A stretch of DNA of 64,000 nucleotides, from contig NZ_CP016634.1 in the NCBI RefSeq assembly GCF_002741075.1, positions 2,960,501-3,024,500 of the forward strand, written 5' to 3'. The notes beneath the pieces are model-generated. The model had not been told where the DNA came from, did not search any database, and saw nothing but the letters and a program-made list of their open reading frames with translations. A program made the translations under genes and the position numbers. The DNA comes from Pseudomonas putida (GTDB taxonomy: Bacteria > Pseudomonadota > Gammaproteobacteria > Pseudomonadales > Pseudomonadaceae). The number at the start of each line of letters is the position of its first letter. The first letter of the stretch is position 1. Below are positions 51,289 through 59,359 of this stretch, in pieces.

Positions 51289-51450
51289 CCGTCTCTCAGC
51301 AGGCAACTGTCGTTTTCAGAAGACGACCGCACCATCTGACTGGATGTAACGCCTGGTGTGCATACGGCTCCTGACAGCCCAATATCAGGAGTCGTCTGCA
51401 CCAATCTCGACTATGCTCAATACTCGTGTGCACCAAAGCGAGGTTTGGGC

Positions 51451-53130
51451 ATGACATCAGACACTCCACCGATTGCCGCGCAAGGCGTGGCCACCCTGCC
51501 CGACGAGGCATGGGCGCAAGCCCGGCACCGGACGGAAATCATCGGGCCACTGGCAGCGCTTGAGGTGGTCGGGCATGAAGCCGCCGATGAGGCAGCCCAA
51601 GCGCTGGGCCTGTCCCGGCGACAGGTATATGTCCTGATCCGTCGCGCCCGGCAGGGTACTGGCCTGGTAACAGACCTGACGCCCGGCCGATCCGGCGGCG
51701 GCAAAGGCAAGGGGCGCTTGCCGGAACCGGTCGAGCGCATCATCCGCGAGCTGCTGCAAAAGCGCTTCCTGACCAAGCAGAAACGCAGCCTGGCGGCGTT
51801 CCACCGCGAAGTCGCGCAGGCGTGCAAAACCCAGAAGCTGCCGGTGCCGGCGCGCAACACCGTGGCCCAGCGGATTGCCGGACTACACCCGGCGAAAATA
51901 GCCCGCAGCCGGGGCGGGCAGGACGCTGCCCGTCCCTTGCAAGGCGCGGGTGGCATTCCGCCCGAAGTCACCATGCCGCTGGAACAGGTGCAGATCGACC
52001 ACACCGTCATCGACCTGATCGTGGTCGACGAGCGCGACCGGCAACCGATTGGCCGCCCATATTTGACCCTCGCCATCGACGTGTTCACGCGCTGCGTACT
52101 CGGCATGGTGGTCACGCTGGAAGCGCCGTCCGCCGTCTCGGTCGGCCTATGCCTCGCGCATGCCGCCTGCGACAAGCGGCCCTGGCTGGAAGGGCTGAAT
52201 GTGGAAATGGACTGGCCGATGAGCGGCAAGCCCAGGCTGCTCTATCTGGACAACGCGGCCGAGTTCAAAAGCGAAGCGCTGCGCCGTGGCTGCGAACAGC
52301 ATGGCATCCGGCTGGACTATCGCCCACCAGGCCAGCCGCACTACGGCGGCATCGTGGAACGGATCATCGGCACGGCGATGCAGATGATCCACGACGAATT
52401 ACCGGGGACGACCTTCTCCAATCCCGGCCAGCGCGGCGAGTACGATTCCGAGAAGATGGCCACCCTGACGCTGCGCGAGCTGGAGCGCTGGCTCGCGTTG
52501 GCGGTAGGCACCTATCACGGCTCCGTGCACAACGGCCTGCTCCAGCCGCCGGCCGCGCGCTGGGCCGAGGCCGTGGAGCGCGTTGGCGTCCCGGCCGTCG
52601 TTACCCGCCCCACCGCGTTTTTGGTCGATTTCCTGCCGGTGATCCGCCGCACCCTGACCCGCACCGGCTTTGTCATCGACCACATCCACTACTACGCCGA
52701 CGCCCTCAAGCCGTGGATTGCCCGGCGCGAGCGCTTGCCCGCCTTCCTGATCCGGCGCGATCCGCGCGACATCAGCCGCATCTGGGTACTGGAACCGGAA
52801 GGTCAGCACTATCTGGAGATCCACTACCGCACCTTGTCCCATCCGGCCGTCACCCTCTGGGAACAACGCCAGGCGCTGGCCAAATTGCGTCAGCTCGGGC
52901 GCGAGCAGGTGGACGAGTCGGCGCTGTTCCGCATGATCGGGCAGATGCGCGAGATCGTGACCACCGCCCAGAAGGCCACGCGCAAGGCGCGGCGCGACGC
53001 TGATCGCCGCCAGCACCTCAAGACGTCGGAGCCACCGGCCAAGCCCATACCGCCGGATGTGGACATGGCTGACCCGCAGGCAGACAACCTGCCGCCGGCC
53101 AAACCGTTCGATCAGATCGAGGAGTGGTAG
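51451..53130 (+). CDS. tniA: Tn402/Tn5053 transposase TniA
   Basis: A 559-residue DDE transposase with N-terminal helix-turn-helix (DEAAQALGLSRRQVYVLIRR) and an integrase core: D in QVQIDHTVIDLIVVD, D in LLYLDNAAEFKSEAL and E in HYGGIVERIIGTAMQM. The C-terminal Mu-C-like region ends ADNLPPAKPFDQIEEW. The protein is nearly identical in recollection to TniA of Tn5053/Tn402. The ATG at 51451 gives MTSDTPPIAAQGVATLPDEA. tniB follows two bases later. Confidence 0.96.
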   Translation: MTSDTPPIAAQGVATLPDEAWAQARHRTEIIGPLAALEVVGHEAADEAAQALGLSRRQVYVLIRRARQGTGLVTDLTPGRSGGGKGKGRLPEPVERIIRELLQKRFLTKQKRSLAAFHREVAQACKTQKLPVPARNTVAQRIAGLHPAKIARSRGGQDAARPLQGAGGIPPEVTMPLEQVQIDHTVIDLIVVDERDRQPIGRPYLTLAIDVFTRCVLGMVVTLEAPSAVSVGLCLAHAACDKRPWLEGLNVEMDWPMSGKPRLLYLDNAAEFKSEALRRGCEQHGIRLDYRPPGQPHYGGIVERIIGTAMQMIHDELPGTTFSNPGQRGEYDSEKMATLTLRELERWLALAVGTYHGSVHNGLLQPPAARWAEAVERVGVPAVVTRPTAFLVDFLPVIRRTLTRTGFVIDHIHYYADALKPWIARRERLPAFLIRRDPRDISRIWVLEPEGQHYLEIHYRTLSHPAVTLWEQRQALAKLRQLGREQVDESALFRMIGQMREIVTTAQKATRKARRDADRRQHLKTSEPPAKPIPPDVDMADPQADNLPPAKPFDQIEEW

Positions 53131-53132
53131 CC

Positions 53133-57595: not shown

Positions 57596-58918
57596 CTACC
57601 GGGTATGACCATGCTCCTTGGCCAGCATACTCACCGCCTGCACCGCATTGCTGGCACCGTCGCTAATTTGCTGGATCACCGCGCCCGCCTGATCCGCCAG
57701 GTCGACGCCTTTAGTGGCCCGGTCACGGGTGCCTTCCATGCTCTTGATGGCTAGCTGTGTTTCGTTCTGGATCATGCCAATCATCCCGGAAATCTCCGCC
57801 GTCGAGCCACTGGTGCGTGCGGCCAACTGACGGACTTCATCGGCCACCACCGCAAAGCCGCGACCTTGTTCACCCGCTCGAGCGGCTTCGATAGCAGCGT
57901 TCAAAGCCAACAGGTTGGTCTGATCGGCAATTCCGCGGATGGTGTTGACGATGGTGGTGATCTGCTCGGAGCGTTCGCCAAGTTTGGTGATGAGGGCTGA
58001 CGAACCTTCGATATTCGAGGCAATCTCCCGCATTTCACTCGCTGCTTGTTGGATCACCGTGGAGCCATGTTCAGCCGCTTGGCGTGTCTCGACCGAGATG
58101 TGATACGCCTCGCTAGCGCTCTGAGCGTCCTGCGCATGCTTCTCCATCTTGGCGGTGATGTCTGTAGCAAACTTCACCACTTTGCATAACCGTCCGCTAG
58201 CGTCATACACCGGGTTGTAGTTAGCTTCCAGCCACAAGGTTTGCCCGCGCTTGCCTACCCGTTCGAATTGCCCACTGAAAAACTCGCCCTGATTCAGGCG
58301 TCGCCAGAAGTCCTGGTACTCGCTGCCGTTGGCCAGTGCTGGACGGCAGAACAGTTTGTGATGTTTGCCCTTGAGTTCGGCCAGACTGTAACCGACCACA
58401 TCCAAGAAGTTCTGGTTGGCGTCAATAATGCTGCCGTCCAGATTGAACTCGATGATGGCCATGGACCGGTCTATGGCCTGCAACTTATTTTTGGCTTCAC
58501 TCTCCTGTTGTACCCACAAGGTGACGTCAAGGGCATACTTAACCACCTTCACCACGTTACCAAGCTCGTCCTTGACCGGGTTATAGCTGGCTTCCAGCCA
58601 GATCGTCTGGCCATTGCCGGCAATTCGCTCGAAGGTGCCCGACTCGAACTGGCCGGCGTTGAGACGGGACCATAATTGTGAGTACTCGCCACTGCGGGCA
58701 TAGGCAGGCGTGCAGAATTGGCGGTGCGGCTGGCCGAGCACTTGCTCCAGGCGATAGCCCATGGTCTTTAAAAAGTTGTCGTTGGCCCGGAGGACGATGC
58801 CATTGAGGTCGAATTCGACTACCGCCATGGAGCGGTTGATGGCTTCGAGCAGACTGGCTTGCTGGGCGATGGTTTGTTGCAGGGCGCTGATATTTTTTTT
58901 ATTAGAATTGAATAGCAC
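57596..58918 (-). CDS. BdlA/Aer-like soluble PAS-PAS-MCP chemoreceptor
   Basis: A 440-residue protein without membrane helices. PAS domain 1 (about residues 30-140: MAVVEFDLNGIVLRANDNFL), PAS domain 2 (about 150-265: MAIIEFNLDGSIIDANQNFL), then a short MCP signalling domain with the conserved hairpin IADQTNLLALNAAIEAARAG followed by EQGRGFAVVADEVRQLA. This order and size match P. aeruginosa BdlA, which triggers biofilm dispersion by lowering c-di-GMP. The start is uncertain: a GTG at 58918 (VLFNSNKKNISALQQ) fits the family; an earlier reading frame start exists at 58984. The HD-GYP gene follows. Upstream, 58919-59310 shows no gene. Confidence 0.85.
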   Translation of the reverse strand: MLFNSNKKNISALQQTIAQQASLLEAINRSMAVVEFDLNGIVLRANDNFLKTMGYRLEQVLGQPHRQFCTPAYARSGEYSQLWSRLNAGQFESGTFERIAGNGQTIWLEASYNPVKDELGNVVKVVKYALDVTLWVQQESEAKNKLQAIDRSMAIIEFNLDGSIIDANQNFLDVVGYSLAELKGKHHKLFCRPALANGSEYQDFWRRLNQGEFFSGQFERVGKRGQTLWLEANYNPVYDASGRLCKVVKFATDITAKMEKHAQDAQSASEAYHISVETRQAAEHGSTVIQQAASEMREIASNIEGSSALITKLGERSEQITTIVNTIRGIADQTNLLALNAAIEAARAGEQGRGFAVVADEVRQLAARTSGSTAEISGMIGMIQNETQLAIKSMEGTRDRATKGVDLADQAGAVIQQISDGASNAVQAVSMLAKEHGHTR

Positions 58919-59310
58919 GATGGCAATAGCTCTGAAGTGGAAACCGATGAAAGTCCGTCCATAGTGATCGCGCTTGCCAACCAAAAAACCTTGCTCATCG
59001 GTGTAAGCGGCTCAATGTCTCCGTCCATGGTTACCGTTGCAAGATGCTGAATGTTGGAAGTTTATGCAACGACTATTAGTGTCTATTTGCTACCACTCGT
59101 GTCCTGCAAGACGCTATTAGCATGAAATGTCCATCTGGCGGCATGCCATAGCTGTCAGTACCCCAGATTGACTAGCGTCAGGTTACTCATTTTCCTGACA
59201 CACCTTTGCCTACAAATTTGCGAGTGGTGGGGTGGGGCTCGGATGTACATGACCTATAGAGATCCTCTCGTGCCAGCCCATGAGTCCGCAACAGCGAGGG
59301 CTTCCTCAGT

Positions 59311-59359
59311 AGTGCAATCGACTTCTGACCTTAGGTGCAATCGACTTCTGAAAATGACA
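59311..59359. repeat. Inner terminus (IRi type) of the Tn402-like element
   Basis: Reversed, it reads TGTCATTTTCAGAAGTCGAT-TGCAC, then CTAAGG, then TCAGAAGTCGATTGCACT. This is the same two-repeat arrangement as the integron-side end of Tn402 elements. It ends 26 bases before the tnpR start. Confidence 0.85.

What the first reader, a model, noticed from the sequence alone, without database searches (positions are those of the whole stretch)
51308..59359. Transposon-borne HD-GYP plus BdlA-like module: a possible mobile biofilm-dispersal switch
Between the intact tni set and the inner terminus lie a c-di-GMP phosphodiesterase with complete HD-GYP residues and a soluble PAS-PAS-MCP protein of the BdlA layout, in one direction, 74 bases apart. 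Tn402/Tn5053 elements normally carry mercury resistance or integrons. In P. aeruginosa BdlA triggers dispersion and lowers c-di-GMP with phosphodiesterases, so this pair could move a dispersal behaviour between hosts. The functional link is inference.
Basis: partly seen in the sequence, partly recalled or inferred. Interest (0 to 1): 0.72.

Follow-up and report, generated by a model that had tools for sequence, protein, structure and literature searches.

The report
Jumping gene pair for biofilm signalling
A small transposon in Pseudomonas carries, instead of mercury or antibiotic resistance, a sensor protein like one that makes biofilm cells let go plus an enzyme of the kind that destroys the biofilm messenger c-di-GMP; the unit has moved between sites and species, but whether it changes biofilm behaviour is untested.

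Summary
51308-59359 is a complete 8,052-bp Tn402/Tn5053-type transposon (terminal repeats, tniA, B, Q, R) whose cargo is a PAS-PAS-MCP gene and, 74 bp downstream, a DUF3391-HD-GYP gene. The end at 59359 is real: similarity to five other records stops exactly there, and the six records have six different flanks. The whole element recurs with 3 base differences in P. paracarnis; a derivative whose tniABQ is replaced by an inverted Tn5053-like set occurs in P. aeruginosa and P. juntendi plasmids, P. sichuanensis and an unnamed Pseudomonas. Four of six flanks fall within 122 bp of one res/tnpR region of Tn4662a-type Tn3 transposons. Every copy seen has tniR beside the pair; 78 other MCP loci examined lack it. 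The window copy is rearranged: no target duplication, half its Tn3 carrier missing.

Mobility of the pair is well supported. The receptor is 53% identical to P. aeruginosa BdlA and keeps six of eight residues reported for BdlA, not Ile109 or Tyr238. A c-di-GMP-lowering role is likely; a BdlA-type dispersal switch is plausible but untested. Precedents exist singly; the combination on a Tn402 element was not seen in the papers found. New variant of a known kind.

The parts
51308..51333 (+). IRt, outer end of the Tn402-type element on the tni side (second inner repeat at 51385-51401)
   Evidence: 26-nt inverted repeat of 59334-59359; similarity to L016/L160 starts exactly here; inner repeats
51358..53130 (+). 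tniA, DDE transposase (longest ORF 590 aa; true start probably further in)
   Evidence: Mu-transpos_C 1.7e-10, rve 2.8e-05 below cut-off; 100% to L003, 83% to the Tn5053-like copies
53124..54041 (+). tniB, AAA ATPase
   Evidence: Pfam TniB 4.4e-78
54038..55255 (+). tniQ
   Evidence: Pfam TniQ 9.3e-22
55275..55318 (+). presumed res region upstream of tniR; place where a Tn5053-like IRt abuts in four hybrid copies
   Evidence: same junction in L001, L002, L017, L159; res role inferred
55319..55936 (+). tniR, serine resolvase
   Evidence: Pfam Resolvase 3.9e-43; 100% beside the pair in L001, L002, L016, L017, L096-L098
55932..56156 (-). fragment of a Zn_protease (PF05618) gene carried with the cargo
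   Evidence: Pfam 2.4e-14; 75 of 75 residues identical in L001, L002, L016, L017, L159, L160
56277..57521 (-). DUF3391-HD-GYP phosphodiesterase gene, 414 aa (WP_049277576 in L001; longest ORF opens at 57551)
   Evidence: DUF3391 1e-30, HD_5 2.1e-32; HDIGK and HHEKVDGSGYP; PDB relatives 4mcw, 5z7c, 4r8z
57596..58918 (-). soluble PAS-PAS-MCP (BdlA-like) gene, 440 aa (WP_049277574 in L001; longest ORF opens at 58984)
   Evidence: PAS_3 in two stretches, MCPsignal 1.5e-40; 53% identical to BdlA
58919..59311 (.). leader between IRi and the MCP gene; no minus-strand sigma-70-like match and no Rfam family found
59312..59328 (-). second inner repeat of the IRi end
59334..59359 (-). IRi, outer end on the cargo side
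   Evidence: six records with six different flanks beyond the tip
59360..63001 (+). target: rest of res, tnpR and tnpA of a Tn4662a-type Tn3-family transposon (left arm missing here)
   Evidence: DDE_Tnp_Tn3 and NF033527 857 bits; 24 of 1,334 matching plasmid records hold at least 80% of 59335-64000; tnpR and tnpA 100% to L005, whose tnpR has the same accession as that of NC_014124
51071..51307 (.). left flank: end-like sequence of another element, also next to IRt in L003
   Evidence: 96% match of window 51071-55899 to L003; partial copies 65-74 kb away in the host

Best explanation
A Tn402/Tn5053-type res-site hunter whose mer or integron cargo is replaced by a two-gene c-di-GMP module. SHOWN by sequence: it is a full transposon, its cargo end sits at different places in several Pseudomonas species, mostly in the res/tnpR region of Tn4662a-type Tn3 transposons, and the two genes stay with it. 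INFERRED: the two genes are read as one message from the IRi side toward tniR; the soluble PAS-PAS-MCP senses an intracellular redox or ligand cue and acts as a BdlA-like adaptor or as an extra soluble chemoreceptor; the HD-GYP enzyme hydrolyses c-di-GMP. Together they bias the new host toward low c-di-GMP, that is motility, less attachment and easier biofilm exit. The window copy is a rearranged insertion, perhaps through homologous recombination between two Tn402-type elements with near-identical tni modules.
For: Full element with 3 base differences in P. paracarnis (L016/L160) inside a Tn4662a-type res region. Six records, six IRi flanks; four map to 3914-4035 of the uninterrupted L005. 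The pair was seen only with tniR; 2 of 72,556 plasmid records hold it. BdlA residues D14, N23, G31, W60, M130, W182 kept; the host's own PAS-PAS-MCP (38%) lacks G31, W60, M130. HD-GYP motifs complete. dN/dS 0.15 and 0.13 against the MCPs of L003 and L161, 0.14-0.25 for the HD-GYP against six homologues. The host has one DUF3391 protein, this one, and one other HD_5 domain. A transposon-borne PDE (Urf2/Mrp) is reported active (PMC6629876, abstract and passages).
Against: Tyr238, reported as needed for BdlA activation, is His, and Ile109 is Val; His is the state in 82 of 84 related sequences. BdlA's reported partners are DipA and RbdA (PMC4047105, passages). No promoter-like match before the MCP gene. 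The two genes have different nearest relatives, unlinked within the flanks seen, so they need not work together. Low dN/dS may reflect chromosomal history; only three base differences separate the full copies, so selection on the transposon cannot be measured. A related mobile-looking MCP (L162) is shortened to 364 aa. Both ends with a matching target were seen only in L016/L160; the second outer end of the four hybrids was not found. Urf2 overexpression in its own host did not change biofilm significantly (PMC6629876).
Confidence: 0.6

Rival explanations
1. Soluble taxis receptor cargo: the MCP feeds the host's chemotaxis array as an energy- or redox-taxis receptor, and the HD-GYP only keeps c-di-GMP low enough for flagellar motility; no dispersal switch.
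For: Signalling hairpin NLLALNAAIEAARAGEQGRGFAVVADEVRQLAARTS intact (role recalled); PDB relatives include aerotaxis receptors; chemoreceptor genes ride on Tn3 transposons (mcpT-2: PMC7765201 and PMC9537497, passages; Tn1721: reference title only); the related P. aeruginosa McpS is tied to chemotaxis (PMC8694187, passages).
Against: The protein lies on the BdlA side of the tree (95*), away from the host's other PAS-PAS-MCP, though BdlA's branch is long and its place open; BdlA signalling residues kept.
Confidence: 0.22
2. Hitch-hiking: two chromosomal genes and a protease fragment were captured by chance and spread by the res-hunting transposon and its plasmids, without a joint function.
For: A broken Zn_protease fragment travels along in the copies seen; the genes have different nearest relatives; two of the four hybrid copies lie on plasmids beside streptomycin (L001) or mercury (L002) genes; a related mobile-looking MCP (L162) is shortened.
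Against: Both genes intact in the copies seen; MCPs of L003 and L161 have diverged to 82% DNA identity from the window's with dN/dS 0.13-0.15 and lie near other c-di-GMP genes (EAL fragment in L003; GGDEF-EAL and HD-GYP genes in L161).
Confidence: 0.2
3. The window arrangement is a chance junction of two unrelated transposon ends, so 51308-59359 never moved as one unit.
For: No target duplication and two unrelated flanks at the window copy; left flank shared with L003.
Against: The 8,052-bp unit with 3 base differences is in P. paracarnis between two adjacent parts of one res region (3-bp GCT overlap with the empty site).
Confidence: 0.03

Closest known systems
Tn5053/Tn402 family (Tn5053, Tn502, Tn512, Tn6606, class 1 integrons)
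   Same: 25-bp IRs with inner repeats, tniABQR, res-site insertion, IRi next to tnpR (window, L016)
   Different: cargo is MCP + HD-GYP instead of mer or an integron; L001 and L002 sit in the opposite orientation; no 5-bp duplication seen
BdlA (PA1423) of P. aeruginosa
   Same: soluble PAS-PAS-MCP, 53% identity, D14/N23/G31/W60/M130/W182
   Different: Tyr238 is His, Ile109 is Val; mobile; beside an HD-GYP gene
Urf2/Mrp EAL phosphodiesterase of Tn501/Tn21-type mer transposons (PMC6629876)
   Same: transposon-borne c-di-GMP phosphodiesterase
   Different: EAL, not HD-GYP; in the mer operon; no receptor gene described in the passages seen
HD-GYP cargo of Tn4662a/Tn5503-type Tn3 transposons
   Same: DUF3391-HD-GYP genes on transposons; 68-69% DNA identity over about 690 bp
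   Different: 47% (L002) and 55% (L005, part) protein identity, Tn3 family, beside a toxin-antitoxin pair
PA2572/PA2573 of P. aeruginosa (PMC3411652)
   Same: adjacent HD-GYP-type and MCP genes reported to work together
   Different: PA2572 has a REC domain and an inactive YN-GYP; PA2573 has a membrane part; chromosomal
mcpT-2 on Tn4656/Tn6603R, MCP-like gene of Tn1721
   Same: chemoreceptor gene as transposon cargo
   Different: Tn3 family; sequences not compared here

Membership tests
Tn402/Tn5053 transposon family | 25-bp terminal IRs starting TGTC with internal repeats | tested here: met
Tn402/Tn5053 transposon family | tniA, tniB, tniQ, tniR | tested here: met
Tn402/Tn5053 transposon family | insertion in or near res of other elements | tested here: met
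   4 of 6 IRi flanks within 122 bp of one Tn3 res/tnpR start; the flanks of L017 and L159 were not assigned to a res
Tn402/Tn5053 transposon family | 5-bp target duplication | tested here: inconclusive
   window copy GCAAC/AACCT, rearranged; L016 3-bp GCT overlap; second outer end of the four hybrids not found
BdlA | two PAS then MCP domain, no membrane segment | tested here: met
BdlA | D14, N23, G31, W60, W182 and cleavage site M130 | tested here: met
   identical
BdlA | Ile109 | tested here: not met
   Val, as in 80 of 84 related sequences; conservative
BdlA | activating Tyr238 | tested here: not met
   His; His in 82 of 84 related sequences
BdlA | orthology to PA1423 | tested here: inconclusive
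   same side of a midpoint-rooted tree (95*), place of BdlA open, McpS not included
BdlA | partnership with DipA/RbdA and dispersal phenotype | not testable with these tools
   needs experiments
HD-GYP c-di-GMP phosphodiesterase | HD and HHExxDGxGYP motifs with aligned metal-site residues | tested here: met
   H176, H208, D209, H237, H262, H263, D291, GYP 270-272 in 424-aa numbering (ligand roles recalled)
HD-GYP c-di-GMP phosphodiesterase | catalytic activity | not testable with these tools
   none
PA2572/PA2573-type pair | REC domain on the HD-GYP partner | tested here: not met
   no REC domain among the Pfam matches

The most novel reading that the evidence does not exclude
Res-site-hunting transposons have become vehicles for behaviour: a Tn402 element carrying a BdlA-like receptor and its own HD-GYP output enzyme nests in Tn4662a-type transposons that can carry another HD-GYP (seen in L002 and L160), building transferable c-di-GMP-lowering islands that tip recipient cells from biofilm to planktonic life. 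A second mobile MCP lineage (about 82% DNA identity: L003, L161, L162), in L003 and L161 near EAL, GGDEF-EAL or HD-GYP genes, would be a parallel build of the same behaviour.
Probability: 0.27. Interest if true: 0.75.

Novelty: new variant of a known kind. Interest (0 to 1): 0.5.

Why it matters
If the pair works as its parts suggest, a transposon found on two conjugative Pseudomonas plasmids, one with antibiotic-resistance and one with mercury-resistance genes, also moves a lifestyle trait. It would let one test directly whether mobile elements manipulate c-di-GMP in new hosts, for instance to leave biofilms and spread, with a natural two-gene module small enough to express in a laboratory strain.

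Tried and rejected
Promoter and Rfam scans of the cargo and leader gave nothing of use. Phage records: 10 short partial matches only; E. coli: no match in 20,395 records (megablast). A search for the missing arm of the Tn3 carrier elsewhere in the host found only this HD-GYP gene itself at 69%, so a simple split of the carrier within the genome was rejected. Two of the window's three differences from L160 lie in tniQ: L003 shares the window's base at 54552 but L160's at 55148, so the recombination account of the missing target duplication is compatible but not shown. Outer ends of the hybrid copies beyond the two known ends were not found in L001, L002, L017, L159 or L193 with up to 7 of 25 mismatches (the earlier scan returned only best matches), so their target duplications could not be checked. 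McpS (PA1930) sequence was not obtained, so the tree lacks it. A 38-bp Tn3 IR pattern found nothing. An alignment of window, L003 and L016 was misplaced (its bin counts are meaningless) and was replaced. No structure prediction was run. In one search, 11 of 142 loci were dropped for stops or length before the tree; identical rows were merged to 117. Paper searches listed no paper seen to describe MCP + HD-GYP on a Tn402-type element; listings and passages were seen, not all full texts, and subscription papers are mostly not held.
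Full report
WHAT IS THERE. The window lies on the larger contig (5.79 Mb) of a Pseudomonas genome (G000:C2:2960501-3024500). From 51308 to 59359 runs an 8,052-bp element with 26-nt terminal repeats, 85% complementary, each with a second inner repeat. On the plus strand come tniA, tniB, tniQ and tniR; on the minus strand, reading from the other end toward tniR, come a PAS-PAS-MCP gene and, 74 bp on, a DUF3391-HD-GYP gene. Between tniR and the HD-GYP gene sits a fragment of a Zn_protease gene.

IS IT A MOBILE UNIT? Yes, on sequence evidence. 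The complete 8,052 bp recur in P. paracarnis (L016, by length and sequence the contig G263:C13, L160) with three single-base differences. There the element stands between ...TGTGCT and GCTACC... of a Tn4662a-type Tn3 res region that is uninterrupted in L005 (TGTGCTACC): one insertion with a 3-bp overlap rather than the family's usual 5. In these four, tniABQ of the window type is missing and the IRt of an inverted Tn5053-like tni module (about 81% DNA identity) abuts the tniR segment at one and the same junction. Beyond the IRi tip the six records show six different flanks. Four (window, L016, L001, L002) map to positions 3914-4035 of L005, the res/tnpR-start region of one Tn3 transposon; the carrier is called Tn4662a-type because its tnpR has the same accession, and its arm the same gene order, as in NC_014124, the Tn4662a record in PMC7157771 (passages). 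In the window and L016 IRi faces tnpR, the orientation that PMC7765201 (section 15 and part 1 of 2 of section 23) calls typical; in L001 and L002 it faces the other way. Limits: both ends with a matching target were seen only in L016/L160, and the second outer end of the hybrids was not found.

THE WINDOW COPY IS REARRANGED. Its flanks (GCAAC, AACCT) do not match. To the right is tnpR-tnpA of the Tn4662a-type transposon, whose left arm was not found in the host genome. To the left are 237 bp similar to the sequence next to IRt in P. putida plasmid p420352-strA (L003), which holds another Tn402-type element with 100% identical TniA and TniB. A simple account is recombination between two such elements through their tni modules. 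It is an inference: of two variable sites in tniQ, L003 shares the window's base at one and L160's at the other. The host also has a second, 81% tni module about 53 kb away.

HOW COMMON. Of 72,556 plasmid records, 797 match some part of 55940-59359 and 2 hold it (printed 100.0%). No E. coli record of 20,395 matches (megablast); phage records give 10 short partial matches. A scan of 84,980 species genomes with the MCP kept the best 80 of 247 relatives: two hold the pair (L016, L017); the other 78 are MCP genes at 67-80% identity without an HD-GYP or tni match in the flank held, up to 8 kb and less at contig ends. Of 398 Pseudomonas genomes sampled (G000 included), 148 have an HD-GYP relative at E <= 1e-60 and three (G000, G057, G263) have the HD-GYP at 100% and the MCP region at 100% (both lists are capped). 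Of the 30 best loci of each search only these three show the pair within about 1.5 kb. With a longer flank, G392 (L161) shows a different, Tn3-borne HD-GYP gene 1.9 kb from a related MCP. The two genes of this pair therefore seem to have met on the transposon. Their nearest named relatives differ: P. alcaligenes-type species for the HD-GYP (73-78%); for the MCP, one P. kurunegalensis protein at 84% (context not seen), then Pseudomonas sp. FEN and P. chlororaphis, fluorescens or asplenii types at about 76-80%.

THE RECEPTOR. It is 53% identical to P. aeruginosa BdlA (WP_003082971, taken from L157). PMC4047105 (passages) reports D14, N23, W60, I109, W182 as needed for dispersion, G31A as hyper-dispersive, and Tyr238 phosphorylation as needed for cleavage between the PAS domains; PMC9769550 (passages) places the cleavage at M130. 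Here D14, N23, G31, W60, M130 and W182 are kept, I109 is Val and Tyr238 is His. His is the rule in this branch (82 of 84 distinct sequences), so the transposon protein is an ordinary member of a Pseudomonas BdlA-like family and not a copy of BdlA. The host's own PAS-PAS-MCP (L007, 38%) lacks G31, W60 and M130 and falls on the other side of the tree (117 rows, midpoint root). The transposon protein groups (99*) with MCPs of L003, L130 (within L161) and L129 (within L162), loci that are mobile or look so. The MCP of L162 is shortened to 364 aa. L003 has a 166-aa EAL fragment nearby; L161 has an MHYT-GGDEF-EAL gene and two HD-GYP genes, one of them in a Tn3 arm 98.5% like that of L002.

THE ENZYME. 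HDIGK and HHEKVDGSGYP are present, and the histidines and aspartates that line up with PDB 4mcw/4mdz are kept (their metal roles are recalled). It is the only DUF3391 protein found in the host and one of two HD_5 domains. By Nei-Gojobori, dN/dS is 0.14-0.25 against six homologues, and 0.09-0.15 for the MCP against eight, which speaks for functional proteins, though much of that history may be chromosomal. In L002 and L160 the Tn3 arm also carries its own HD-GYP gene; in L001 none was found in the stretch held, and in the window that arm is missing.

MECHANISM. Shown: structure, ends, different flanks, intact domains. Inferred from families: c-di-GMP hydrolysis by the HD-GYP protein, intracellular sensing by the PAS pair. 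Inferred from adjacency: joint transcription and joint action. The most likely effect is a lower c-di-GMP set point in the recipient. Whether this amounts to dispersal, taxis or nothing selectable is open.

KNOWN PRECEDENTS. A c-di-GMP phosphodiesterase on a transposon is not new: Urf2, renamed Mrp, of Tn501/Tn21-type mer operons restored c-di-GMP and biofilm levels in a P. aeruginosa rocR mutant, although its overexpression in its own host did not change biofilm significantly (PMC6629876, abstract and passages). Chemoreceptor genes ride on Tn3 transposons (mcpT-2: PMC7765201, PMC9537497, passages). Tn5503-like transposons carry 'two metal dependent phosphohydrolases' (PMC6713103, passages), and HD-GYP genes beside a toxin-antitoxin pair occur in Tn4662a-type elements. 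Adjacent MCP and HD-GYP-type genes are reported to act together in PA2572/PA2573 (PMC3411652, passages). PMC10488154 (passages) treats the plasmid group of L001 and L003 and does not contain the words chemotaxis or methyl-accepting. None of the papers listed was seen to describe this cargo on a Tn402-type element; most were seen as listings only.

VERDICT. A real, recently mobile Tn402/Tn5053-family element with new cargo; 'mobile' is well supported, 'biofilm-dispersal switch' is a fair but unproved hypothesis.

Noticed in passing
window 48388-51018: A chromate-resistance block (TauE-like ORF, chrA, PadR-type regulator; names) lies between 56-nt inverted repeats (80%) built of short repeats; no transposase ORF was noticed inside.
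   Followed up: no
window 51071-51307 and G000:C2:3076502-3086075: End-like sequence with repeated GCTTGCATT/GCTCACATT motifs (by eye) beside IRt; partial copies in opposite orientation 65-74 kb away in the host, and two copies in L003 about 16 kb apart near a TnsA gene: a larger transposon may enclose the region.
   Followed up: partly
window 51279-51291 and L017 flank of IRi: A 13-base stretch CCGTCCAATAAAC of the window's left flank also lies in the flank of L017's IRi (by eye): perhaps another res-like target.
   Followed up: no
L161 4364-18284: Unnamed Pseudomonas (G392): Tn3 arm with an HD-GYP gene, then a mobile BdlA-like MCP, an MHYT-GGDEF-EAL gene and a second HD-GYP gene within 14 kb, a possible c-di-GMP island.
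   Followed up: partly
L157 4088-4156: In P. aeruginosa an in-frame ATG upstream of the annotated bdlA start would add a leader (MFTRKYRQMNADLQQQLAAERLH) like the N-terminus of the transposon MCP; the annotated start may be too far downstream.
   Followed up: no
G000:C2:3062035-3068639 (L195): A second Tn402-type tni module (81%) with integron-like IRi ends, three TGTC ends in all, in the host.
   Followed up: partly
small plasmids, e.g. H157-H180: Plasmids of about 4-5 kb in Enterobacter, Citrobacter, Klebsiella and others carry a PAS-PAS-MCP gene 42% identical to this one, some annotated BdlA.
   Followed up: no
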